In this document: positions 7,402-58,014 of the stretch, piece after piece
Layout of the letters: each line of letters starts with the position of its first letter
How positions within the stretch are numbered: the first letter of the stretch is position 1
NCBI RefSeq assembly: GCF_030345095.1
Contig: NZ_CP128360.1
Location: forward strand, 930,001 to 994,000
Source of the DNA: Solwaraspora sp. WMMA2056
Lineage (GTDB): Bacteria > Actinomycetota > Actinomycetes > Mycobacteriales > Micromonosporaceae
DNA: 64,000 bases
Reading direction: 5' to 3'
Position numbers and translations under genes: made by a program
Notes under the pieces: generated by a model
What the model saw: only the letters and a program-made list of their open reading frames with translations
Told to the model about the DNA's origin: nothing
Databases searched by the model: none

Positions 7402-8903
7402 CGTCCTTGTCGTCCTTCGCTCAGATGGTCGTGATCATGCCTGGCGGTGCCGTGTCCTTCCACAGACGGTACGGCCCCGACATGAATTTCGACGTGTCCG
7501 GATGCCATCTGGTTCTCAGCCGTGACCAATCGCTCCACGGGCTGGCCGAGGGCGCCCGTGCTGCCGAGGCTGTCCCTGATCAGGTAGATGGCCAGGCCGC
7601 TGCAGACCAGGGCGACGATCACGCCGAGAATGACGGCCAGGACGGTGAACAGCTGTCGGGACACCCCGCCGCCCGAGCGGGGCGGTGCGGTCGCCGGGCG
7701 CTGGTACCCGTACGGGTTGGGCTGCTGGTGCGGGCCGAGCGGCGGCCGGGCCGGCGCGGCGGGGCGCTGCTGGTACCCGGCCGGCGGGTAGCCGCCGGGC
7801 TGCGCCGGCGCGGGTGGCCGGTAGCCGGATGCCCCGGTGACCGGCGGGCCATAGCCGGGTGCCCCGGAGGTCGGCGGACCAGGCGGGCGGTAGCCGGGTG
7901 CCCCGGAGACCGGCGGGCCCTGCGGTGGCCGCGGTGCCGGCGGGAGCGGACCGGGTGACATCGGGCCGACAGGGGAGACCGGCGCGCCGGAGGTCGGCCG
8001 GGGTGCGACCGGCGGGCGGGGGGCGGCCCCCGGGTGGTGTCCGGCTCCCGGATGGTGTCCGGTGGCCGGTGGGCGGGGCTGCCCGGCGAGGGTGGTGGCG
8101 GCCTGCCGGGTGACCGCAGCCAGGGCGGCGGCGGTCGGCCAGCGGGCGGCCGGGTCCTTCGCCAACGACCGCTCGACGATGCTGCGGACCACGGGTGGGA
8201 TGTCCGACGGCAACGCGCGGGGCATCTCCCGTACGTGTTTCATGGCGATCTCGAGCGGATTGTCGCCTTCGAAGGGCCGTCGACCGGAGAGGCACTGGTA
8301 GGCGACGACCCCGAGCGCGTACACGTCCGACGCGGGCGTCGCCACCGCGCCGGACGCCTGTTCCGGCGAGATGTACGACGCGGTGCCCAGCACCGAGCCG
8401 GCGGCGGTCAACTGCCCCACCATTTCGGAACGGGCGATGCCGAAGTCGGTGAGCACCAGGGTGCCGTTCGGCCGGACCAGCAGGTTGCCCGGCTTGACGT
8501 CGCGGTGCACGATGCCCTTCTCGTGGGCGGCGTGCAGCGCGTCGGCGGCCTGGGCGACCAACGCCATCGTGCGGGCCGGGGTGAGCCGGCCGACCCGGGA
8601 CAGGGTGCGCGACAGTGCGTCGCCCTCGACGTACTCCATCACCAGGAAGGCGATGTGCTTGTCGCTGCCGTAGTCGTAGACGTCGACCACGCCCGGGTGG
8701 TTGATGGTGGCCATGGTCCGGGCCTCACCCCGGAACCGCTCGGCGAAGCCGGGCTCCTCCAGCAGCGCGGGGAGCAGGCTCTTGACCGCGACGGTACGGC
8801 CCAGCACCTCGTCGGTGCCGCGCCACACGTCGCCCATCCCGCCGCTGGCGATGCGCTCGTCGAGCCGGTACCGGCCACCGAGCAGGACCCCGGAGCTCAG
8901 CAT
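7398..8903 (-). CDS. pknA: Serine/threonine protein kinase PknA
   Basis: 501 residues from the ATG at 8903, one nucleotide after the pbpA stop. The kinase domain has a GSG-type loop (ASGGMGDV), Lys41, HRD with Asp135 and DFG with Asp153. A long Pro/Gly-rich linker of GYRPPGPP-like repeats precedes a transmembrane helix (LFTVLAVILGVIVALVCSGLAIYLI) and a short extracytoplasmic tail without PASTA domains. PknA acts with PknB in controlling cell shape and division and phosphorylates several of the proteins encoded beside it in mycobacteria. Confidence 0.94.
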   Translation of the reverse strand: MLSSGVLLGGRYRLDERIASGGMGDVWRGTDEVLGRTVAVKSLLPALLEEPGFAERFRGEARTMATINHPGVVDVYDYGSDKHIAFLVMEYVEGDALSRTLSRVGRLTPARTMALVAQAADALHAAHEKGIVHRDVKPGNLLVRPNGTLVLTDFGIARSEMVGQLTAAGSVLGTASYISPEQASGAVATPASDVYALGVVAYQCLSGRRPFEGDNPLEIAMKHVREMPRALPSDIPPVVRSIVERSLAKDPAARWPTAAALAAVTRQAATTLAGQPRPPATGHHPGAGHHPGAAPRPPVAPRPTSGAPVSPVGPMSPGPLPPAPRPPQGPPVSGAPGYRPPGPPTSGAPGYGPPVTGASGYRPPAPAQPGGYPPAGYQQRPAAPARPPLGPHQQPNPYGYQRPATAPPRSGGGVSRQLFTVLAVILGVIVALVCSGLAIYLIRDSLGSTGALGQPVERLVTAENQMASGHVEIHVGAVPSVEGHGTARHDHDHLSEGRQGR

Positions 8904-8904
8904 C

Positions 8905-10413
8905 TCATCGCCCCTCACGCTCGGCGATGATGGCCCGCATGATCTGGCCGGAGATCCGAGTCGCCTCGGCGCTGCCGCCGTCGCCGGCGTTCTCCAGTAC
9001 GACGCAGACGGCCGAGATCGGCTCCCCGTCGGCGGAGATGGCGAAGCCGATGAACCAGCCGTGGTCGCGGTCGTTCTCGCCGGCCTGTGCGGTGCCGGTC
9101 TTGCCGCCGACGGTGTAGCCGTCGATGCGGGCGTTACGGCCGGTGCCCTCACGGACGACGCTGACCATCATCTCCTGCAGGTCGGCGGCGACCGAGCCGC
9201 TCACCGACTCCCGCAGCTCGCGGGGGTCGGCCGTGTAGTAGCTGCTGGTCCGGTCCGCGTGCAGCAACTGCTGCACCAGGTACGGGCGCATCTGGCTGCC
9301 GCCGTTGGCGACCGCCGCCGCGATCATCGCGCCTTCCAGCGGGGTCATCCGGACGTTGTTCTGCCCGATCGACGACTGGGCCAGCGCGGCGCCGTCCTCG
9401 GAGCCGTCCGGGTTGGCGATGTCCCCGGTCCGGCTGGCGGCCACCGGCAGCCCACTGTCGCCGTTGGTGCGGCCGACCACCTGCTCCTCGTCCTCGAACC
9501 CGAAGTCGCGGGCCTTGGCCTTCACCGTCTCGGCGCCGAGCGCGACGCCCAGCTTCGCGAACCCGGTGTTGCAGGAGTCGGTCAACGCGGTGATCAGGGT
9601 CACCTCGTCCTGCGGGCAGATCGACGGGACGGCGTTGCGGATGTCGGTGCCGGAGTCGGGGTGACGGTAGACCGGTCCGGCGGAGATCGGCGTGTCGATC
9701 GTGGTGCCGTTCTCCAGGGCCGCCGCGGCGACGACCACCTTGAAGGTGGATCCGGGCGGCAGCACCTCACCGAGCGCGCGGTTACGCAGTGGCTTGTCCG
9801 GGTCGCCCTCCAGCGCGTTGTACGCCTCCTGTGCGGCATCGGAGTCGTGGCTGGACAGCGGGTTCGGGTCGTAGCTGGGCAGCGAGACCAGCGCCTGGAT
9901 CGCCCCGGTACGCGGGTCGACCGCGACCGCCGCTCCCCGGCTGACCCCGACCCGGTTCTCCAGCAACTGCTGGTACGCGGTCTCCTGGGCGCGGCGGTTG
10001 ATGGTCAGCAGCACGTTGCCGCCGCCGGTCTCCTCGCCGGTGAACAGGTCCCGTACCCGGTCGGCGAAGAGCTGGTCGCTGGTGCCGGCCAGGAACTCGT
10101 TCTCGGCCCGTTCGACGCCGAGCGCGGCCAGGTTGACCGGCTTGTAGCCGACGACGTGCGCGTAGAGCTCGTTGTCCGGGTAGGTACGCAGGAACTTCAG
10201 CTCGCCGTCGGTCTCGGTGCTGGTGGCCAGGGCCCGTCCGCCGGCTTCGATGTTGCCGCGCTGGCGGTCGTACTCGGCGACCTGGACCCGGCCGTTGTAG
10301 TCGCTGGTGCGGTACTCCTCGGCCTTGTAGCCCTGCACCCAGTTGAGATTGGCGAAGAGCAGGCCGAACAGGACCATGATGACCACGCCGACACGGCGCA
10401 ACGGGGCGTTCAT
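8905..10413 (-). CDS. pbpA: Class B penicillin-binding protein (peptidoglycan transpeptidase)
   Basis: 502 residues. An N-terminal membrane anchor (VGVVIMVLFGLLFANLNWVQ) is followed by a short dimerisation domain and a transpeptidase domain with all three penicillin-binding motifs: Ser222-Thr-Phe-Lys225, Ser280-Cys-Asn282 and Lys438-Thr-Gly440. It crosslinks peptidoglycan outside the membrane and probably works with the adjacent RodA polymerase. Its start overlaps the rodA stop by 4 nt, indicating translational coupling. Confidence 0.95.
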   Translation of the reverse strand: MNAPLRRVGVVIMVLFGLLFANLNWVQGYKAEEYRTSDYNGRVQVAEYDRQRGNIEAGGRALATSTETDGELKFLRTYPDNELYAHVVGYKPVNLAALGVERAENEFLAGTSDQLFADRVRDLFTGEETGGGNVLLTINRRAQETAYQQLLENRVGVSRGAAVAVDPRTGAIQALVSLPSYDPNPLSSHDSDAAQEAYNALEGDPDKPLRNRALGEVLPPGSTFKVVVAAAALENGTTIDTPISAGPVYRHPDSGTDIRNAVPSICPQDEVTLITALTDSCNTGFAKLGVALGAETVKAKARDFGFEDEEQVVGRTNGDSGLPVAASRTGDIANPDGSEDGAALAQSSIGQNNVRMTPLEGAMIAAAVANGGSQMRPYLVQQLLHADRTSSYYTADPRELRESVSGSVAADLQEMMVSVVREGTGRNARIDGYTVGGKTGTAQAGENDRDHGWFIGFAISADGEPISAVCVVLENAGDGGSAEATRISGQIMRAIIAEREGR

Positions 10414-47744: not shown

Positions 47745-48854
47745 ATGGCCCTGTTGAGCCTGATCATCCCGGTCTACCGGGTCGAGAAGTACCTCGCCGC
47801 CTGCCTCGACTCGATCCTCGACCAGCAGTGCGACGAGGTGGAGATCGTCGCCGTCGACGACGCCTCCGACGACCGGTCGGGCGCGATCCTGGCCGAGTAC
47901 GCGCAGCGCCACCGGCAGATCACGGTGGTCACGATGGACCGCAACTCGGGGCTGGGCGCCGCCCGCAACGCCGGGATCGCCCACGCCAGCGGGCGCTACG
48001 TCTGGTGTGTCGACAGTGACGACTGGCTGCCGGCCGGGTCGCTCGCGGCGGTGGTCGAACGGCTCCGCCGGACCGACCCGGAGATCCTGATCACCGGGTA
48101 CGCGCGGGTGTACCCCGACGGCCGGGCCGAGGAGCACCCGGTCACCGACATCGCGCCGGGGCGGCAGTTGCCGGCGGTCTTCTCCTTCGCCGACGAGCCG
48201 GGTCTACTCGACGTCCTGTGGATCGCCTGCAACAAGATCGTCGATCGGGAGTGGCTGGCCGGGACCGGCATCACCTTCCAGTCCGGCTGGTACGAGGACG
48301 TGTCGTCCGTGATCCCGCTGATGGTCGCCGCCGACCGGATCGCCGTACTGGACCGGGACTGCTACGCGTACCGGCAGCACCACGACGGCGCGATCACCCG
48401 TACCGTCAGTGACCGCCACTTCGAGGTGTTCGACCAGTGGCAGCGGGTCTTCACCTACCTCGACTCCGACCCTGGCCGGGCCGCACCGGTCCGGTCGTTG
48501 ATCTTCGGCCGGATGATCTGGCACTGCCTGCAGGTGCTCGGCCACCCGCACCGGGTGCCCCGGTCCAGCCGGCGGCGCTACTTCCGCGGCACCGCCGCGC
48601 TGTACCGCCGGTACCGGCCCGGCGGCGCCTACCCGGTGCCGGGCGGCGCCAACGAGGCGGTCAAGCACCGGCTCGTCGCGGCGAACGCCTATCCTCTGTA
48701 CGAACTGCTGATGGCCTGCTGGCTGGTGCGGAAACGGCTGTTCGGCTCCCCTGCCCGGGGGATGGCCGCCGCCACGCGACCACGACCTGCGGCGATGACC
48801 GGTGCCGGGGCCGGAGCCGGTGGCGGGCAGAACCGGGAGGAGACCCTCAGGTGA
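47745..48854 (+). CDS. Family 2 glycosyltransferase
   Basis: 369 residues; ATG at 47745 begins the family start MALLSLIIPVYRVEKYLAACL. GT-A motifs: EIVAVDDASDDRSGAI, MDRNSGLGAARNAGI and CVDSDDWL (DxD). Similar to capsular polysaccharide or teichuronic-type transferases. It overlaps the next gene by 4 nt and is divergent from the sigma-factor gene (238-bp gap). Confidence 0.87.
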   Translation: MALLSLIIPVYRVEKYLAACLDSILDQQCDEVEIVAVDDASDDRSGAILAEYAQRHRQITVVTMDRNSGLGAARNAGIAHASGRYVWCVDSDDWLPAGSLAAVVERLRRTDPEILITGYARVYPDGRAEEHPVTDIAPGRQLPAVFSFADEPGLLDVLWIACNKIVDREWLAGTGITFQSGWYEDVSSVIPLMVAADRIAVLDRDCYAYRQHHDGAITRTVSDRHFEVFDQWQRVFTYLDSDPGRAAPVRSLIFGRMIWHCLQVLGHPHRVPRSSRRRYFRGTAALYRRYRPGGAYPVPGGANEAVKHRLVAANAYPLYELLMACWLVRKRLFGSPARGMAAATRPRPAAMTGAGAGAGGGQNREETLR

Positions 48855-50848
48855 CACGTGGTGCCGGATCCGACACCAGCGGGCCGGCCGGCGTCGAGGT
48901 CACCTGGCGACTACGCGGGCTCGCCCCGCCGCGTCCCGCCGAGCGGCTCGGCCGCGCCGTGGGCCTGCGGGTGCTGCGCGTACCCGGGACCGGGCAGGCC
49001 CTCGTCGTCGCCGGCACCGTGGACCGGCTCCGCGACCTGACCCACCATCCGGCCGCCGGCTCGCCGGTACGGTCGGTGACCGTGGTCGTCGCCTGGTGGC
49101 GGTCCCCCCGGGTCGGCTGGGGCGGTACGGTCGGCATGCTGCCGCGACTGCGCCGGCACCGGGTGGGGCTGCCCCGGCTGCGTCGGGGCGCGGCCACCGT
49201 CCGGCTCGCCGTCGCCGCCCCGGTGGCGCTGCGCGATGCCGTACGGTCGGCGCTGAACGCCCTGGACGGTGCCCGGCCGATGCCGGCCCCCGGCAGCCCG
49301 GACGTCACCGGCGTCGTCCCCGCCCGCAGCGGCGGCAGGGCCGGTGGCCGCAGCGGCGGTGGGCCGGCGTTCCTGTCGGCGACCGCGACCGTCACCACCG
49401 GTGAACTCACCGCCCGTGACGAGATCCGCGCCCACGACCTGGTCGTCACGCCGGCAGCGGTGGCGCCCCGACCCGACGACGCCGGCACCGTGCTGGCTGG
49501 CACCGTGCTGGCCGGTAGCGGACACCGCGTCACCGTCACCGAGGGTGCGCCGATGGTGCTCGTCGACGCCACCCGGATCAACCCACGGGGCCGACCAGTG
49601 ACGGCGTACCGGTCTTCGGCGCCCGAGGCCACCCTGGAGTTCGCCCGGGGCGGCCGGTCGGCGGCCCGGTTCCGCGCCGACCCGGCCACCGGGCCGGCCG
49701 GTGGCCGCACCCTGCAGGGGGCCTTGACCGGGCCCGGCCTGGACGCGACCGCGCTCGCCGCGCTGCGCCAGGTCCGCGCGGTGCACTGCCGACTGGTGCC
49801 GGGCGAACACCCGGCGCAGACCGCCGGGCTGCTGGTGCAGATCGCCGCCACCGGGGTGCTGCTGCACGCCCCGGTGCTGCCACCGGCCGTCGCCGACCTG
49901 CTCGACCCGGACCTGCGGGCACTGGTGAGCACACCGCCGCCGACCCCCGACCACGACGACCCGGCCGGCACCGCGCTGGCCGTCGAGGCGCGCAGCGTAC
50001 GGCAGCGCCGGGCCGCGCTGCGCGGGCACGCCGCCGGGCTGCGGCTACCCGCCCTGGCCACCGGCGGGCTGCCGGTACTCGGCCAGCCACCCTCGGTCAG
50101 CGCGATCCTGGTCACCCGCCGGGCGGAGCTGGTGCCGGTGGCGCTGGCCGCGATCGCCGCGCAGACCTACCCGGAGTTGGAGATCGTCCTCGGGCTGCAC
50201 GGCATCGACCTGCCCGAGCCGGCCCGGCGGATGCTGTCCGACTGCGGCCGCCCGTTCGAGGTGGTCCGACTGCCGGCCAGCGCCGACTTCGGCGCGGCGC
50301 TCGGCGCGGTGACCCGGCGCGCCCGGGGCACCCTGGTCACCAAGTTCGACGACGACGACAGCTACGGCGTCGAACACGTCTGGGACCTGGTCCTGGCCCG
50401 GCACTACTCCGGCGCGGTGCTGGTCGGCAAGGGTGCCGAACTCGTCCACCTGGAACGTGAAGGGGTCACCCTGCGCCGCAGCTCCGGGGTGCCCGAAGCG
50501 TACGGCGACGTGGTGGCCGGCGGCACGATGCTGCTCGCCAAGGGCGATCTGGAGGCCGTCGGCGGGTGGCGCCCGGTGCCCCGCTCGGTCGACCTCGGCC
50601 TGATCGAGCGGCTGCGCGCGGCGGGGGCGAGCGTCTACCGCACCCACCCGCTCGGCTACCTGTACCACCGCCGACCCACCGGGCACACCTGGGATCCGGG
50701 CGAGGCGTACTTCGTGGACAGTGCGTACGCCCGCTGGCCCGGGGTGCCGCCGGACGCGATGGCCGACCCGGTCAGATCACCATCGACGGCAGCGGCCAGC
50801 GACGCAGCCGGTGCGGCAGCCACACCAACTGGTCCCCCACCTTCGTGA
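48851..50848 (+). CDS. Multidomain protein with C-terminal family 2 glycosyltransferase domain
   Basis: 665 residues from a GTG overlapping the preceding stop. The N-terminal ~400 residues are unlike known families (low-complexity, beta-rich). The C-terminal part is a GT2 domain: VSAILVTRRAELVPVALAAIAAQTYPELEIVLGLHG and TLVTKFDDDDSYG (DxD). Its 3' end overlaps the DUF5825 gene by 77 bp in convergent orientation. Probably works with the upstream GT2. Confidence 0.8.
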   Translation: MTRGAGSDTSGPAGVEVTWRLRGLAPPRPAERLGRAVGLRVLRVPGTGQALVVAGTVDRLRDLTHHPAAGSPVRSVTVVVAWWRSPRVGWGGTVGMLPRLRRHRVGLPRLRRGAATVRLAVAAPVALRDAVRSALNALDGARPMPAPGSPDVTGVVPARSGGRAGGRSGGGPAFLSATATVTTGELTARDEIRAHDLVVTPAAVAPRPDDAGTVLAGTVLAGSGHRVTVTEGAPMVLVDATRINPRGRPVTAYRSSAPEATLEFARGGRSAARFRADPATGPAGGRTLQGALTGPGLDATALAALRQVRAVHCRLVPGEHPAQTAGLLVQIAATGVLLHAPVLPPAVADLLDPDLRALVSTPPPTPDHDDPAGTALAVEARSVRQRRAALRGHAAGLRLPALATGGLPVLGQPPSVSAILVTRRAELVPVALAAIAAQTYPELEIVLGLHGIDLPEPARRMLSDCGRPFEVVRLPASADFGAALGAVTRRARGTLVTKFDDDDSYGVEHVWDLVLARHYSGAVLVGKGAELVHLEREGVTLRRSSGVPEAYGDVVAGGTMLLAKGDLEAVGGWRPVPRSVDLGLIERLRAAGASVYRTHPLGYLYHRRPTGHTWDPGEAYFVDSAYARWPGVPPDAMADPVRSPSTAAASDAAGAAATPTGPPPS

Positions 50849-51461
50849 CCAGGCCCTCCTCCCCGAACTCGCGGGCGATGTCGATGTCCACGCCGGTGAC
50901 CGGTGCGCCGTCGACCAGTTGCGCCAACACGGCAAGGTAGGCCGGGTCGTCGATGGTCAGCAGGTTCAGCTGACCGGTGCGCCGGTCCCGTACCTGCACG
51001 AAACCCGGGCCCTGGCGGTAGGTGCACTTGTCGAAGTAGAAGGCGTCCCGCCAGGCGGTGGTGGCCGCCGCCGACGTCGCGGCGTCGGCCCCGACCAACT
51101 CGACGGCGACCGGCGGGCGCAGGTGCCCGTACACCCGCCACAGGTCGTCGTCGCCGCCGGGCAGCCGCACCGACCAGTCGATCTCGATGGCGTAACTGGT
51201 CGCCTCCCGGACCAGCACGAGTCGGCGTACCGCGTCGGCCGCCGCCGCCGGATCGGCCACGGTGAGATCGACGACGCCGGGCAGGACGAGCTTGCGGACA
51301 CCGTCGGCGTGCCAGTCGGCGACGGCGTCACCGACCGGCCCGGTCACCTCGGCCGGGCCGAGGTCGATGCCGGGGATGTCGGCCACCGCCGGATCATGGT
51401 CGCGGTGCCGCCGTACGGTGATCGGCCGGGACGGCCCGGCGGCGACGGGGGTGGTGGTCAA
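50772..51461 (-). CDS. DUF5825 family protein, RiPP operon accessory
   Basis: 229 residues from a TTG at 51461 with AGGAG 7 nt upstream. Sequence features: RKLVLPGVVDLTVADPAAAADAVRRL, SYAIEIDWSVRLP and FYFDKCTYRQGPGFVQVRDRR. DUF5825 proteins are found next to B12-radical SAM RiPP maturases in actinobacteria; a function as precursor recognition or partner subunit is my inference. It starts 30 nt after the radical SAM stop and overlaps a convergent glycosyltransferase gene by 77 bp. Confidence 0.75.
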   Translation of the reverse strand: MTTTPVAAGPSRPITVRRHRDHDPAVADIPGIDLGPAEVTGPVGDAVADWHADGVRKLVLPGVVDLTVADPAAAADAVRRLVLVREATSYAIEIDWSVRLPGGDDDLWRVYGHLRPPVAVELVGADAATSAAATTAWRDAFYFDKCTYRQGPGFVQVRDRRTGQLNLLTIDDPAYLAVLAQLVDGAPVTGVDIDIAREFGEEGLVTKVGDQLVWLPHRLRRWPLPSMVI

Positions 51462-51491
51462 CGGGCTGCTCCTGTCAGAAGGCGGTTCCGG

Positions 51492-53462
51492 TCAGACGGC
51501 GGTGAGCGCGGGCACTGGCTCCGGCGCGGCGTTACCGGCGGCCCCGACGGCGTCGGCGGACGCCGCCTCTTCCTGCGCGGCCGCCCGCTCCTGATGCAGG
51601 TGGTCGATCCGGATCAGCTCCTGGTTCATCGCCCTGGGGGCGATCTGGATGAACTGGTCCGCGTCGGCGAAGACGATGCCGAGTTCCCGCCAGCGGGCCA
51701 GCAGCGCGGCGACGGCCGGCTCCGGTACGTCGATGCGCCGGGCCAGTGAGGCGACGCTGTGCGGCTGGTCCAGTTGGCGGAACGCGGCGATCTCGGCCGG
51801 GTCGGTCAGCCGCAGCACATGCCAGTCGAAGTGCCGTCGCTGGCTGACCAGCACGATCTCGTCGCCGAGGTCGTGGTGGGTGAGCCGGCTACGGGCGTAC
51901 TCGTGCTGCCAGTGGGTGACGGCCCGGTCCAGCTCGTCGCCGACGTCGTCGCCGATGCCCTGGGTCGGGGTGTCGAAAATGTATGCCAGGTCCATCAACT
52001 CGGATTCGGGCAGGTCGTAGATGAGCCGGTACTGGGCGGCCGGGCGCAGGTCGGTGAAGCCGAGCGCCGGGTTGACGAAGTACGGGCTGAACCGTTCGAT
52101 GGCGATCCGGGTGCTGCCGTCGGCCGGGCAGAGGTGGTGCAGGGCCGGCATCTGCTCGATGATCGACCGGTAGTCGGCGTCGGTTTCGCCGGGGAAGCCG
52201 TACAGGTAGTTCCAGGCGATGGTGATGCCGCTGGTCTCGGCGTCGCGCAGCATCCGCACGTTGAGGCAGCCGGTCACCCCCTTGTCCATGATCTTGAGTA
52301 CCCGGCTGTTCAGGTTCTCGATGCCGGGCTGCACGCTGACCAGGCCGGCGTCGGCGAGCGCCTGCACCTGCGGGCCGCGCATGTTCGACTTGATCTCGTA
52401 CTGCAGCCGCAGGTCGTAGCCGGACTCGGCCAGCCGGGGCAGCAGCGAGGTCACGTAGCTCATGTCGAGGATGTTGTCGACGACGAACATGTCCAGCACC
52501 TGGTGCCGCTGCACCAGGTCGATGATCTCGTCGTAGAACCGCCCCGGATGCTTGCTGCGGAACTGCATGAACGACCCGTTGAGGCCGCAGAAGGTGCAGT
52601 GGTGCTTCTCGCCCCACCAGCAGCCCCGGGCGCCTTCGACGACCAGCCGGGGTTCGACCCAGTGGTTGGCCCGGGAGCTGGCCAGCCGCTCGAAGTAGCC
52701 GGTGTAGTCGGGGCTGACGATCTCGGCGGGGGGCAGCGGGGCGGTGCTCATCGGGTTGGCCACGTGCCGTCCGGCGGCGTCGGCCCAGCAGAGACCTTCG
52801 ATCCCGGCCAGGTCGGGCCGACTGTCGGTGTCGATGCCTGTGTCGGTGTCGCGCAGGGCGGTCAGCAGCTTCGGGAACGCCGCCTCGCCTTCGCCGCGTA
52901 CCACGTAGTCGATGAAGGAGAAGTTGCGGTGCATCGCCGCGCCCTGCTCGCCGTCGCAGTTGGCGCCGCCGAGCACGGTACGGATCCGCGGGTCGAGCCG
53001 CTTGACCGCCCGCGCGGTGGCCAGGGCGGCGGCGTTCTGCTGGAACGTCGAGGTGAACCCGACGATGTCCGGCTGCCGCTCGACGATCCGGGCGGCCACC
53101 TCGGCGACGAACTCGGGCACCGTACGGTGCAGCTCCAGGTTGCGGGTGAGGTCCCGTTCGGACATCTGGCCCTGCACCCGGGTGACGAACTCGTCGACCC
53201 GCCACTGCGGATCGTCGTAGAGCGCGGAGGAGAAGACCCAGTCGCCGCAGCCGGAGAAGTAGGTGAACAGCGAATAGTAGTAGTAGTCGCTCAGGCCGAA
53301 CTCGGTGCGCTCGACCACCCAGTCGACGAAGTCGAGGTTGGCGTGCATCACGTCGACCTGCGCGTCCGGCACCTTCTGGCGGACGCTGTTGGTGAGGATG
53401 CCCAACGCCAGCGACGGGACATCGATCGATGACCACGGCATGTTGACCAGCAGGATCCGCAT
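51492..53462 (-). CDS. RiPP maturation B12-radical SAM C-methyltransferase
   Basis: 656 residues from the ATG at 53462 preceded by GAGGAGAAGAAGGG. The N-terminus (MRILLVNMPWSSIDVPSLALGIL) and ~200 residues form a cobalamin-binding Rossmann domain (VGFTSTFQQNAAALATARAVKR, VLGGANCDGE). The radical SAM domain has the unusual CX7CX2C motif: Cys281-WWGEKHH-Cys289-TF-Cys292, typical of the RiPP maturation family. These enzymes methylate unactivated sp3 carbons of precursor peptides using methylcobalamin and SAM. A C-terminal helical HTH-like region (VASLARRIDVPEPAVAALLARW) may bind the precursor. It follows the precursor gene. Confidence 0.92.
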   Translation of the reverse strand: MRILLVNMPWSSIDVPSLALGILTNSVRQKVPDAQVDVMHANLDFVDWVVERTEFGLSDYYYYSLFTYFSGCGDWVFSSALYDDPQWRVDEFVTRVQGQMSERDLTRNLELHRTVPEFVAEVAARIVERQPDIVGFTSTFQQNAAALATARAVKRLDPRIRTVLGGANCDGEQGAAMHRNFSFIDYVVRGEGEAAFPKLLTALRDTDTGIDTDSRPDLAGIEGLCWADAAGRHVANPMSTAPLPPAEIVSPDYTGYFERLASSRANHWVEPRLVVEGARGCWWGEKHHCTFCGLNGSFMQFRSKHPGRFYDEIIDLVQRHQVLDMFVVDNILDMSYVTSLLPRLAESGYDLRLQYEIKSNMRGPQVQALADAGLVSVQPGIENLNSRVLKIMDKGVTGCLNVRMLRDAETSGITIAWNYLYGFPGETDADYRSIIEQMPALHHLCPADGSTRIAIERFSPYFVNPALGFTDLRPAAQYRLIYDLPESELMDLAYIFDTPTQGIGDDVGDELDRAVTHWQHEYARSRLTHHDLGDEIVLVSQRRHFDWHVLRLTDPAEIAAFRQLDQPHSVASLARRIDVPEPAVAALLARWRELGIVFADADQFIQIAPRAMNQELIRIDHLHQERAAAQEEAASADAVGAAGNAAPEPVPALTAV

Positions 53463-53546
53463 GTGCCCTTCTTCTCCTCGTCGGACTTGTTTCGATCGCA
53501 CCAAGGTGTGGTGGGACTCGCGTGCGGTGGGACTCGCTCGCGCAGT

Positions 53547-53601
53547 GGATGGAGGCGGTCGGTCGCGCCGGCAGACAGCGGTGGTCCGCCCGCCTCCACC
53601 C
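53547..53601 (-). terminator. Hairpin between precursor and radical SAM genes (attenuator)
   Basis: The arms TGGAGGCGG and CCGCCTCCA pair over 9 bp with 2 further pairs beyond a mismatch; the ~31-nt loop is GC-rich. It lies 13 nt after the precursor stop. It could end most transcripts and let the precursor be made in excess over the enzymes. Confidence 0.55.
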
Positions 53602-53613
53602 CGTACGGCCGGA

Positions 53614-53715
53614 TCAGAACTTGATCTTGACCGTGACCGTGACCTGGACGCCCGCGCTGCGAAGCTGGTCGCGGTTGCCGTTGATCGGGTCGTTCTCGAC
53701 AACGTTCTTCCGCAT
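53614..53715 (-). CDS. Putative RiPP precursor peptide, 33 residues
   Basis: A 33-codon gene from the ATG at 53715 with a strong ribosome binding site (GAGAGGAGGTGAAC). The product begins MRKNVVENDPINGNRDQLRS and ends AGVQVTVTVKIKF. From Val23 to Phe33 residues alternate without exception between hydrophobic (Val, Val, Val, Val, Ile, Phe) and polar or cationic (Gln, Thr, Thr, Lys, Lys). There is no Cys and no signal peptide. It stands between an S9 peptidase gene and a B12-radical SAM enzyme gene, both in the same direction. I read the first ~22 residues as leader and the rest as core. A longer frame back to 53796 lacks a ribosome binding site. Confidence 0.75.
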   Translation of the reverse strand: MRKNVVENDPINGNRDQLRSAGVQVTVTVKIKF

Positions 53716-53770
53716 GCCGTTCACCTCCTCTCCGATCGACGATGGACCTGTCAACGTGCGGAAACGCGGG

Positions 53771-55612
53771 TCAACCGACCGGCCTGGCCATCGCAAGCGC
53801 GACCGGGGTCCCCTCCTCCTGCACGCCGTCGAAGTGCCGCTGCATGAACAGCAGCACGGTCTGCGTCAACGCGAGATGGCTGTGCGCGTCGAAGTCGTCG
53901 TGCCCGGCCCGCCGCCGGACCACCTGGTGCGGCACCCGCCGCGCCGCGAGCAGACCCGCGTACCGCTCCACCGGCTCCGGCGGGCAGCGCACGTCGTCGC
54001 TGGAGACAGCGAGCAGCACCGGCGCCCGGACCTGGTCGACGTAGGTCACCGGGGACGACCGGGCGTACGCCTGCGGCACCTGCTGCGGGCTGCCGCCGAA
54101 CAACGTCACGTCCAGCGCCTGGACCGCCGGCGAGGCGGCGTGGAACGCGGCGACGTAGTCGGCGACCGGGCTGATCGCCACCCCCAACCGCCACAGCTGC
54201 GGCTGCACACCGAGGGCCAGCAGCGTCAGGTAGCCGCCCCACGACGTACCCCACAGGGCGACCCGGCCGGACTCGATCGCGCCGGCCGCGACCAGGTGTT
54301 CGCGGACCGCCGCGAGGTCGGCGATCTGGGTCAGCCCGACCCCGTCGCTGAAGTCGTTGCGCCACGCCGAGCCGTACCCGCTGGACCCCCGGTAGTTGAC
54401 CCGCACCACCGCGCATCCGGTGCTGGCCAGCACCTCCACCAGCGGGTCGTACGCGTCCCGGGCGTGCTGGGACGGCCCACCATGGACCAGGAAGACGGCC
54501 GGATGGGTGGCACGACCGTCGTTCGGCACGGTCAGCAGGACGTGGATCCGTCCGCCCGGACCCGGCACCCACAGCTCCTGGCGGGTGTTGTCGTCGACCG
54601 GCACCGCCGCCGCGGCCGGATCCGACTGCGCGCCGCTGTCCGGCAACCGCACCCCGCTGTCCGGCAACCGCACCCCGCTCGCCGACCGCAGCTGAGGGGG
54701 CGTCAGCGAATCCGTCCAGATATAGACGAGCTCGCCGTCGGGCCAGACCGCCGCGTCGAGCACGCTGCCCGCCGGGGTCGGCGACACCACACTGGTACGG
54801 GCGGTGAGGTCCGCCTCGTGCAGCACCGTCCGCGCGTACCGGTCCTGCCGGATCAGGATCCGCCGACCGTCCGGGAACCAGCTCGCGGTGATCTCGGTGT
54901 CGTACCAGCACCATTCGTACGTGGTCAGTCCGCCGTCGGCGGTCCAGGTCGCCGGGAAGTAGCGTCCGTCGGACTCGACCACCAGCAGCAACCGCGCCTC
55001 GCCTCCGCCGGGCGCGAAGCCCAGCGCCCAGACCCGCCGACTGGTGCGGCCGGCGATCCGGCTGACCGGCGTACCGTCGCGGTCCAGGACGGTGACCGCG
55101 TCGGGGGCCGCCGCGTCGGTGCCGACCACGGCGAGGTCACCGGCCGGATCCAGGTCGACCAGGTACGCGTACCCGTCGATCCGGGTCACCTCGGTGATCC
55201 GGCCGTGCGGCTGGCGGCGGTGCAGCGTCAGACCGTCGTCGTCGGCGAGCCCGACCAGGGCCGTCCCGTCGTCGGCCATCGCGATGCCCGCGTGCCGGGC
55301 GGGCGCCACCCCGGGCAGCGCCGGCGTCGTGGCGAAGCTGGTGGTGGGGCCGTCGGGAAAATCGGTGGTACGCCAGACACCGACCCCGGCCAGGTCGTCG
55401 TCGAACCACCACACCGTTTCACCGGCCGGGTCGAGCGCAGCCCGGATCGTGCCGGTCGGCCGGTCGGTCAGCTGCGTCAGGGCACCGGCCCGGCGGTCCC
55501 AGGCGAAGATCTGGCACCGCCCGTCGGCGTCACCGACGTACACCAGCCGGTGCGGTGCGTGTTCGGCGACGACCGGCAGCGCCGGGTAGAACAGCCGGTA
55601 CTCGCGACTCAT
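53771..55612 (-). CDS. S9 family prolyl-oligopeptidase-like peptidase
   Basis: 613 residues, ATG overlapping the MFS stop. The N-terminal two-thirds are a beta-propeller (repeats with DPAGETVWWFDDD, DPAGDLAVVGTDA). The C-terminal alpha/beta-hydrolase has HGGP (377-380), Ser457 in GTSWGG, Asp540 and His571 (AGHDDFDAHSH). Cytoplasmic, with no signal peptide. S9 enzymes cut small peptides. In this operon it may remove the leader of the precursor or break down shunt peptides; this is inferred. A 24-nt direct repeat encodes GVRLPDS twice (residues 313-327). Confidence 0.9.
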   Translation of the reverse strand: MSREYRLFYPALPVVAEHAPHRLVYVGDADGRCQIFAWDRRAGALTQLTDRPTGTIRAALDPAGETVWWFDDDLAGVGVWRTTDFPDGPTTSFATTPALPGVAPARHAGIAMADDGTALVGLADDDGLTLHRRQPHGRITEVTRIDGYAYLVDLDPAGDLAVVGTDAAAPDAVTVLDRDGTPVSRIAGRTSRRVWALGFAPGGGEARLLLVVESDGRYFPATWTADGGLTTYEWCWYDTEITASWFPDGRRILIRQDRYARTVLHEADLTARTSVVSPTPAGSVLDAAVWPDGELVYIWTDSLTPPQLRSASGVRLPDSGVRLPDSGAQSDPAAAAVPVDDNTRQELWVPGPGGRIHVLLTVPNDGRATHPAVFLVHGGPSQHARDAYDPLVEVLASTGCAVVRVNYRGSSGYGSAWRNDFSDGVGLTQIADLAAVREHLVAAGAIESGRVALWGTSWGGYLTLLALGVQPQLWRLGVAISPVADYVAAFHAASPAVQALDVTLFGGSPQQVPQAYARSSPVTYVDQVRAPVLLAVSSDDVRCPPEPVERYAGLLAARRVPHQVVRRRAGHDDFDAHSHLALTQTVLLFMQRHFDGVQEEGTPVALAMARPVG

Positions 55613-56937
55613 CGACGTGCCTCCTCGACCTGTGACTCCGGCTTGGGCTCTGCCTCGGACTCTGGGCCCGACGACGGCTCGGGCCCGGGGGGCGGTTCGC
55701 TCCCGTCCTCGCCCTCTTCCGTGCCGGCACGCAGATGCCGCAGGCTGGCGGTGGTGTAGACGGCCAGCAGGGCCAGCAGGGCGGCGAACACCAGCGCCAC
55801 GGCCGACGGGCTGTACCACGCCACCAGCAGCCCGGCGAGCAGCGGCGCCGGGGTCTGCAGCACCTCCCCGGCGGTGCCCATCACGGTGCCGACCCGGCCC
55901 TGCAGCTCGTCCGGGGTCAACGCGATGACCCGGGACTGGAAGATCACCCCGAGCAGCGGGCTGAGCAGGAACACCAGGCCGAACAGCAGGCCGTACGTCC
56001 AGGTCTGCCGAGCCTGTGACATGGCGACGACCAGGGCCACCATCGCCCATGACGAGACGACGATGACGGTCATCGGTCGGACCCGGGCGAACACGGCCGG
56101 CGCTGCCAACGCGCCGGTGAGGCCGCCGATGCTGGCGACGGCGAGAATGAGCCCGATTGACGCGGCCGGAGCGCCCTGCTGGCCAGAAGTCAGAATTGCG
56201 TAGTAGATCAGTGCGCCGAAAGTGAAGTTGATGGCGGCGGCCCAGATGGTGACGAATCTCAAGAATGGCTGCTGCCAGACGAAACGCAACCCGTTCCGCA
56301 GATCAGCGAGAAATGACGTACGTTCCGCGCGCACCGGTGTGAGGTCGGTACGAATTGCCGACACCAGACAGGCGGAGACGACGTAGGAAACCGCATCCAC
56401 CAGAAATGGCACCCATCGCCCGAGCTGGTAGAGCGCACCGCCGATCACCGGCCCGACGACCTGTACGGCGTGATTGCGCGCCTCCAGCCGGGACAGGGCC
56501 AGCTTGTCGTCGGCAGGGAGGACCCGCCGGATGGACCCGGCACCGGCGGCCTCGTACCCGCTCTGTGCGACGCCTTCCACGAACGCCGCACCGGCCAGCA
56601 ATGCCAGGGTGACCGCGCCGACGGCGACCCCGGCGAACAGAGTCGCCATCACCACGGCCGCCACCACCAACGAAACGACCATCATCTGCTTGCGTGGCAG
56701 CCGGTCGGCCAGGACGCCGGCCACCGGAGCGGCGGCCAGCCGGCCGGCCAGCGCGAGCGCGCCGACGAGTCCGGCGGCTGCCGGCGACCCGGTGACCGCC
56801 AGCGTCACCAACGGGAACACGATCCCCGATGTCTGAGATCCCAGTTGATCGACCGCACCAGCGATCCAGTACAGACGGAAATCTCTTCTTCGCGTTGCTT
56901 CAGCTGCCGTCACATTCGGCGTCGAGGACGCGTGCAT
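55609..56937 (-). CDS. MFS transporter, probable RiPP exporter
   Basis: 442 residues from the ATG at 56937, about 12 transmembrane helices in two halves (LYWIAGAVDQLGSQTSGIVFPLVTLAVTG..., LADRLPRKQMMVV). It resembles the Bcr/enterobactin-exporter-like MFS group (TransP_EntS type) used for antibiotic export. The C-terminus is a Glu/Pro/Ser-rich tail. First gene of the RiPP operon; its stop overlaps the S9 peptidase start, so export and processing are coupled in translation. Confidence 0.87.
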   Translation of the reverse strand: MHASSTPNVTAAEATRRRDFRLYWIAGAVDQLGSQTSGIVFPLVTLAVTGSPAAAGLVGALALAGRLAAAPVAGVLADRLPRKQMMVVSLVVAAVVMATLFAGVAVGAVTLALLAGAAFVEGVAQSGYEAAGAGSIRRVLPADDKLALSRLEARNHAVQVVGPVIGGALYQLGRWVPFLVDAVSYVVSACLVSAIRTDLTPVRAERTSFLADLRNGLRFVWQQPFLRFVTIWAAAINFTFGALIYYAILTSGQQGAPAASIGLILAVASIGGLTGALAAPAVFARVRPMTVIVVSSWAMVALVVAMSQARQTWTYGLLFGLVFLLSPLLGVIFQSRVIALTPDELQGRVGTVMGTAGEVLQTPAPLLAGLLVAWYSPSAVALVFAALLALLAVYTTASLRHLRAGTEEGEDGSEPPPGPEPSSGPESEAEPKPESQVEEARR

Positions 56938-57330: not shown

Positions 57331-58014
57331 TTGACCACCGAACGCATCCCCGACCAGCAGCCACTATGGGATGCCTGGCATGCCTCGGGCAGGTCCACCG
57401 GGCGGTACGCCGGCCATCAGCGGCTGCGACAGACCTTCACCGAGCGAATGACCCGGCTGCCGGCCGCGCGACGGGTACTCGACGTCGGCTGCGGACAGGG
57501 CCACGACATGCTGGCCATGGCGGCGGCCGGCTGGCACGTGACCGGCGTCGATCTCTCGCCGGAAGCGATCCGGTTGGCGCGGGCCCGCGTACCTGAGCAG
57601 TCAGGCCAGCCGGACGCGGCGGCGACCGAACTCCACGTACACGACATCGCCGCGGGCCTCCCGTTCGCCACCGGCCGCTTCGACGGTGTCTACTCGCACC
57701 TCGCGCTGCACTACTTCACCGAGCGGACCACCCAGCACGTGTTCGATGAGATCGGCAGGGTGCTGCGGCCCGACGGCGTCCTGGCCTTCTGCGTCAAGTC
57801 GACCGCCGACCCCAACTACGGCAAGGGCGAGCAGTTCGGTCCTCGGATCTTCAGCGTCGACGGCCATGTCCGGCATTTCTTCGACGAGGAGTACACCCGT
57901 AAGTTGCTCACCGGCTGGCGCATCGAGATGCTGGACCACTACGACGGCAGGTTCGAGTCCGGCCGGTCCAGTGCTTTCATAGGTGTCGTCGCGACACGGG
58001 CCGACGCCGGTTGA
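57331..58014 (+). CDS. Class I SAM-dependent methyltransferase
   Basis: 227 residues from a TTG with GGGAGGGGAG upstream. Rossmann methyltransferase motifs: VLDVGCGQGHDMLAMAAAGWHVTGVDLS, FDGVYSHLALHYF and LRPDGVLAFCVK. Small-molecule methyltransferase of the methyltransf_11/25 type. Divergent from the RiPP operon across a shared promoter region; possibly a tailoring enzyme of the RiPP, but unproven. Confidence 0.85.
   Translation: MTTERIPDQQPLWDAWHASGRSTGRYAGHQRLRQTFTERMTRLPAARRVLDVGCGQGHDMLAMAAAGWHVTGVDLSPEAIRLARARVPEQSGQPDAAATELHVHDIAAGLPFATGRFDGVYSHLALHYFTERTTQHVFDEIGRVLRPDGVLAFCVKSTADPNYGKGEQFGPRIFSVDGHVRHFFDEEYTRKLLTGWRIEMLDHYDGRFESGRSSAFIGVVATRADAG

What the first reader, a model, noticed from the sequence alone, without database searches (positions are those of the whole stretch)
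50772..56937. Compact RiPP operon with an unrecognised 33-residue precursor
Five genes on one strand encode an MFS exporter, an S9 peptidase, a short peptide, a B12-radical SAM enzyme with the CX7CX2C motif of RiPP maturation C-methyltransferases, and a DUF5825 protein. Several overlap or nearly touch. Known B12-radical SAM RiPPs (polytheonamides, bottromycins) have different precursors and different partners. The peptide gene has a strong ribosome binding site and no similarity I recognise, so this looks like a new RiPP class.
Basis: partly seen in the sequence, partly recalled or inferred. Interest (0 to 1): 0.92.

Follow-up and report, generated by a model that had tools for sequence, protein, structure and literature searches.

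The report
Clavusporin-like C-methylated peptide operon
This five-gene operon most likely makes a short, oily, extra-methylated peptide of the recently described clavusporin type, in a bacterial family that seldom forms the aerial filaments such peptides are thought to help raise; it is a distinct variant of a known kind, not a new class.

Summary
Five minus-strand genes (MFS exporter, S9 peptidase, 33-residue peptide, B12-radical SAM enzyme, DUF5825 protein) lie at the stated coordinates, and the small ORF is a real gene: a profile of 24 Streptomyces-type precursors picks it as the best match in its 7.0-Mb genome (E 7e-4; next 2.0), and a recognisable precursor lies upstream of the radical SAM gene in 76 of 81 related loci. 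The 'new RiPP class' claim is not supported: the same genes in the same order occur in Streptomyces clavuligerus, and two papers, seen as passages, state that a homologous B12-rSAM/DUF5825 pair C-methylates clavusporins and that an S9-family protease, MpcP, removes their leader. The primary clavusporin paper is not held. The window belongs to a separate branch, mostly Micromonosporaceae, whose precursors lack the acidic tail, mostly lack the proline before the core, and end in an alternating V/I-polar core closed by Phe. Added here: a hairpin after the precursor gene in most relatives, a possible leader-binding (RRE-like) domain in the DUF5825 model (weak evidence), and occurrence in a family that rarely forms aerial hyphae.

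The parts
53614..53715 (-). Precursor peptide gene, 33 aa: leader MRKNVVENDPINGNRDQLRS, core about (A)(G)VQVTVTVKIKF
   Evidence: best match in the whole genome for a Streptomyces-type precursor profile (E 7.2e-4)
53547..53601 (-). Predicted stem-loop directly 3' of the precursor stop codon, no T tract; probable attenuator or mRNA-stabilising element setting the precursor:enzyme ratio
   Evidence: window z -1.94 over 73 bases (z -1.02 when the whole 151-base gap is folded); 84 distinct loci mean z -3.40
51492..53462 (-). B12-dependent radical SAM C-methyltransferase (TIGR03975), 656 aa, with a C-terminal winged-helix-like region (about residues 527-606, my reading of the model)
50772..51461 (-). 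DUF5825 protein, 229 aa, TTG start; winged-helix, possibly RRE-like, C-terminal domain in the model; constant neighbour of the radical SAM gene
53771..55612 (-). S9 peptidase (acylaminoacyl/prolyl oligopeptidase type), probable leader protease (MpcP counterpart)
   Evidence: PMC12951456 passage
55609..56937 (-). MFS transporter, probable exporter

Best explanation
A clavusporin-type RiPP operon of a separate, mainly Micromonosporaceae branch. The 33-aa precursor is translated; its conserved leader (MRKxVIxNDPIxGNRxQxR) is bound by the winged-helix/RRE-like domain of the DUF5825 protein and/or the C-terminal winged-helix region of the radical SAM enzyme. The B12-radical SAM enzyme then adds methyl groups to unactivated carbons of the core, most likely Cbeta of the alternating Val/Ile residues (giving tert-leucine-like residues). 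The S9 peptidase cuts the leader after about residue 19-22 and the MFS protein exports the 11-14-residue product, which would form an amphipathic beta strand with one branched face and behave as a surfactant. A hairpin after the precursor gene would keep precursor mRNA in excess over enzyme mRNA. Shown here: gene content, order, precursor homology, hairpin prediction, fold resemblance. From passages in the literature: C-methylation and leader removal in clavusporins. Inferred: translation, leader binding, sites of methylation, cleavage site, export, surfactant role, hairpin function.
Confidence: 0.85

Rival explanations
1. The operon makes a RiPP of a truly new class: the radical SAM enzyme here does something other than C-methylation, such as cross-linking or epimerisation.
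For: Another B12-rSAM, in biphenomycin-like clusters, cross-links ortho-tyrosines (PMC12257519 abstract). The precursor here differs from the Streptomyces type in leader, junction and tail.
Against: The radical SAM protein is 62.5% identical to the S. clavuligerus enzyme over 95% of its length, the same four genes keep the same order, and the DUF5825 partner is the one described for C-methylation. The core has no Tyr or Trp, and one Phe.
Confidence: 0.08
2. The operon is an inactive or decaying copy.
For: No product is known to me for this strain.
Against: The reading frames are open, the precursor is found in 6 of 7 held genomes of the genus, and (13 relatives given, 10 aligned) the first 18 precursor codons show no nonsynonymous change against 7 of 10 and the enzyme's pN is below its pS in all 10.
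Confidence: 0.04
3. The DUF5825 C-terminal domain is an ordinary winged helix used for contact with the radical SAM enzyme, and leader binding is done by the radical SAM enzyme's own C-terminal winged-helix region. (This concerns one step and can hold together with the main reading.)
Confidence: 0.4

Closest known systems
Clavusporins (Mpc system; Zhang et al. 2025, Nat Chem Biol, doi 10.1038/s41589-025-01882-8; not read, known from passages of PMC12257519 and PMC12951456)
   Same: B12-rSAM + DUF5825 pair and S9/POP-family protease (passages); in S. clavuligerus also MFS gene, same gene order and homologous precursor; cores align by eye as SVGITITVPFR / GVQVTVTVKIK.
   Different: Precursor 33 aa, not 39; leader MRKNVVENDPINGNRDQ rather than MQKDVIHNDPLAGDEENR; no Pro before the core; no acidic tail, the chain ends at Phe. 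Host family described as rarely bearing scant aerial hyphae (PMC6113628 passage).
Biphenomycin-like RiPP clusters with a second B12-rSAM + DUF5825 (YHxYxY precursors, PMC12257519)
   Same: DUF5825 beside a B12-rSAM in a RiPP cluster (passages).
   Different: Those clusters have an MNIO and its partner protein; none of the five window proteins matched such a family.
Polytheonamide-type C-methyltransferases (recalled)
   Same: B12-rSAM C-methylation of Val-rich cores (recalled).
   Different: Different precursor and partners; no epimerase or lanthipeptide-type enzyme among the family matches of the five proteins.

Membership tests
Clavusporin-type (mpc) RiPP operon | B12-rSAM C-methyltransferase encoded next to a DUF5825 protein | tested here: met
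Clavusporin-type (mpc) RiPP operon | S9 (prolyl-oligopeptidase family) leader protease gene | tested here: met
   Gene present, Peptidase_S9, closest solved relatives are acylamino-acid-releasing enzymes; activity not testable here
Clavusporin-type (mpc) RiPP operon | Precursor homologous to those of the Streptomyces loci | tested here: met
   E 7.2e-4, best of the genome; next 2.03
Clavusporin-type (mpc) RiPP operon | Same gene order as the S. clavuligerus locus | tested here: met
Clavusporin-type (mpc) RiPP operon | S. clavuligerus locus examined here is the published clavusporin locus | tested here: inconclusive
   Primary paper not held; inferred from name, gene set and the MpcP passage
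Clavusporin-type (mpc) RiPP operon | Product with C-methylated unactivated carbons | not testable with these tools
   Needs mass spectrometry
Clavusporin-type (mpc) RiPP operon | Surface activity and role in development | not testable with these tools
   Recalled from the clavusporin abstract, not read here
Streptomyces sub-type of the precursor | Pro at the leader/core junction and acidic C-terminal tail | tested here: not met
   Pro in 49 of 57 distinct Streptomyces-type sequences but in 1 of 12 distinct window-type sequences (L126), not in the window; acidic tail in none of the 12
TIGR03975 RiPP maturation radical SAM C-methyltransferase | Score over the curated cut-off and CX7CX2C | tested here: met
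   622.6 against 281.85 bits; C281, C289, C292 invariant in 37 sequences, window included
RRE (RiPP recognition element) fold in DUF5825 | TbiB1/PqqD-like winged-helix fold that binds a leader | tested here: inconclusive
Bottromycin-type RiPP | YcaO enzyme in the operon (recalled) | tested here: not met
   No YcaO match among the five proteins at E up to 0.001

The most novel reading that the evidence does not exclude
DUF5825 is a leader-binding (RRE-bearing) partner that presents short precursors to B12-radical SAM methylases across several dissimilar precursor families. The window's branch makes a follower-free, nearly fully beta-branched amphipathic strand whose job is not aerial hypha formation but some other surface function in Micromonosporaceae, such as spore release or colony spreading.
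Probability: 0.28. Interest if true: 0.6.

Novelty: new variant of a known kind. Interest (0 to 1): 0.42.

Why it matters
It extends a very recent RiPP class to a branch with a simpler precursor (no follower, no junction proline), which makes enzyme recognition and protease specificity directly testable. It also raises the question of what a clavusporin-like surfactant does in a family described as rarely bearing even scant aerial hyphae. The recurrent hairpin and the possible RRE-like DUF5825 domain are concrete, testable hypotheses for the whole class.

Tried and rejected
New class: rejected because of the clavusporin gene set. Neighbouring class I methyltransferase (57331-58014, divergent) as part of the system: rejected; tblastn with it gave one match in L113-L153 (L130, 84%; where an MFS gene was found on the operon strand these stretches reach about 3-4 kb, in L113 5.6 kb, beyond it; in the window the gap is under 0.4 kb) and five weak matches in L003-L112 (L009, L010, L016, L018, L062; 31-38%, 2.8-7.3 kb downstream of the radical SAM start; L083-L112 are too short to reach that far). 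Genes on the other side: a plus-strand ORF 48437-50848 overlaps the end of the DUF5825 gene and matches Glycos_transf_2 only weakly, below the cut-off; ORF 47595-48854 matches it clearly; opposite strand, not pursued. Sigma-70 and T-tract terminator scan: 1 promoter-like site (57297-57270, minus strand; expected 0.3) and 1 terminator-like site (expected 1.4), not at the precursor hairpin. Foldseek on the DUF5825 model: nothing with E up to 0.001. Sequence search of DUF5825 against solved structures: none up to E 1. HMM search of the DUF5825 C-terminal part: DUF5825 only (Pfam), nothing (NCBIfam). I first thought that the invariant GPGF/RDRR block of DUF5825 marks a leader-binding strand; it lies on the first two strands of that domain, while RREs as I recall bind leaders along their third strand, so I dropped it. 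Synonymous/nonsynonymous test of the precursor: uninformative as a coding test because synonymous sites are nearly frozen too (pS 0.079, pN 0.077 over the 45 pairs of ten 33-aa genes; 0 synonymous changes in about 11 leader sites against each of five same-genus relatives while the enzyme shows pS 0.12-0.26).
Full report
Observation. The five genes are at the given coordinates on the minus strand. The radical SAM protein scores 622.6 bits to TIGR03975 (cut-off 281.85), the DUF5825 protein 211.4 bits to PF19142 (cut-off 25), and the other two are Peptidase_S9 and MFS_1. The MFS and S9 genes overlap by four bases; the peptide gene starts 55 bases after the S9 stop; the radical SAM gene starts 151 bases after the peptide's stop. 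The peptide matches no Pfam or NCBIfam family at E up to 0.001.

Is the small ORF a gene? Yes. The search for related loci found 516 relatives of the radical SAM protein in genome contigs and kept the best 80. With the S. clavuligerus locus that makes 81; a short ORF with the pattern [MVL]xKx[VIF][IVF]xx(x)P[LI] lies upstream in 76 of 81 (pattern made). The five misses are L031 and L073 (only 106 and 37 bases of upstream sequence held), L014, L049 and L079. A profile of 24 Streptomyces-type precursors (A3; chosen out of 57 distinct ones; one from Streptantibioticus; no sequence of the window's branch) was run over the whole 7.0-Mb genome: the window's peptide came first with E 7.2e-4, the next match had E 2.03. 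The window-type profile (A4, 12 distinct sequences from 16 loci) hits 6 of 7 held genomes of the genus, window included, and 9 of 397 genomes of the order at E up to 0.01, three of these weak (E 0.005-0.009). L164, one of the stronger ones (E 1.3e-11), has MRKSVVHNNPLGGNREQSRTVTVSVSVRF (29 aa from an internal ATG; the ORF list gives 32 aa from GTG) beside an S9-like ORF.

What it is. Gene order MFS-S9-rSAM-DUF5825 holds in 68 of 80 loci; 5 of the 12 exceptions are cut by contig ends (L024, L031, L056, L068, L073), the others are L008, L039, L040, L049, L074, L078, L079. S. clavuligerus carries the same genes on large plasmids (16 of the 30 listed plasmid records hold its radical SAM gene); in the one opened (L113), the precursor MQKDVIHNDPLAGDEENRKPSVGITITVPFRNAEDADED at 8812-8931 is not in the gene table and overlaps the end of the annotated S9 gene, and the gene after the radical SAM gene, labelled hypothetical, matches the window's DUF5825 protein. 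[quoted passage not shown] The primary paper (doi 10.1038/s41589-025-01882-8) is not held; that clavusporins lower surface tension and aid aerial growth is recalled from its abstract.

The variant. In a quick 72-row radical SAM tree (window, 34 of the 81 loci, 37 of the 40 fetched stretches, three duplicates left out), 13 of the 15 other window-type rows lie with the window in one set of 15 rows (SH-aLRT 98) that also holds L140, a long-branched locus without a recognised precursor; the two Pseudonocardiaceae rows (L058, L072) and the Streptomyces clade attach next to it in an unresolved fork, so window-type precursors are not shown to be one clade. They are 31-33 aa in the 12 aligned, with M1 R2 K3 N8 D9 P10 I11 G13 N14 R15 Q17 R19 V25 V29 F33 invariant. 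The core alternates V/I with mostly polar residues: permutation p 0.0015-0.0024 in 11 of 12 and 0.013 in the twelfth; the sequences are related, so these are not independent. Pro stands before the core in 49 of 57 distinct Streptomyces-type sequences and in 1 of 12 window-type ones (L126). None of the 12 has the acidic tail. Three same-genus genomes (G079, G093, G114) carry, besides the window type, a second operon of a different precursor family, MKRRSVRHDPITTSERERGAVIVKMLLDMDRAVPARRH....

Hairpin. In 84 distinct loci the 70 bases after the precursor stop fold with mean z -3.40, below -2 in 70 (window -1.94). Controls on 83 loci without the window: after the precursor stop -3.44 (71 below -2), before the precursor -1.90 (34), radical SAM coding -0.05 (6), after the radical SAM stop +0.73 (0); after the S9 stop 0.01 (1 of 28). 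Folding the whole gap to the radical SAM start is less clear: z from -3.42 to +0.38 in 11 window-type loci, window -1.02; five more loci gave no gap in that script. By eye the stems are made of different sequences in different loci; covariation was not computed. Most KRR-type loci fall outside the pattern used, so the hairpin was not measured for them.

Host. The window genome shares its family group with G182, whose contig 1 has the length (328186) of the M. wenchangensis contig of L004, so the host is taken as Micromonosporaceae, genus unnamed. PMC6113628 (passages) describes that family as rarely bearing scant aerial hyphae, with Actinocatenispora as an exception, so an aerial-growth role is doubtful here.

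Literature limits. Searches for DUF5825, TIGR03975, clavusporin, MpcA/MpcP and related terms listed no paper whose title or abstract start shows the window-type precursor; I opened passages of two of them only, and most subscription papers are not held, so this is not proof of absence.

Noticed in passing
L146, ORF starting 259 bases upstream of the radical SAM start: A B12-rSAM/DUF5825 locus in another genome of the family (G031) has an ORF with five 8-residue repeats around YKV/YKI (DYKVDAVR SYKIDAAH SYKIGVAR GYKVGTAR SYKVGAMV), which looks like a multi-core precursor; an MFS gene lies upstream.
   Followed up: partly
L114-L120, L123, L125, L132, L135, L139: A second precursor family (such as MKRRSVRHDPITTSERERGAVIVKMLLDMDRAV...; L135 more divergent) with S9, rSAM and DUF5825 but no MFS match to the window's; its 12 radical SAM proteins form one side of a branch (support 100).
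   Followed up: partly
window 53662-53715: The first 18 codons of the precursor gene show no synonymous change against five same-genus relatives while the enzyme gene shows pS 0.12-0.26, suggesting constraint on the DNA or RNA itself.
   Followed up: partly
L066: Two tandem, different precursors in front of one radical SAM gene in Streptomyces sp. CBMA152.
   Followed up: no
L113 8812-8931: The S. clavuligerus precursor is not in the plasmid gene table (the table is incomplete by design), and in several S. clavuligerus records no feature is listed under the radical SAM match.
   Followed up: no
L138, 172 bases upstream of the radical SAM start: A 27-aa precursor-like ORF, MQKSVVLNDPQSERSVASVEVSVTVKF, beside rSAM and DUF5825 without S9 or MFS matches.
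   Followed up: no
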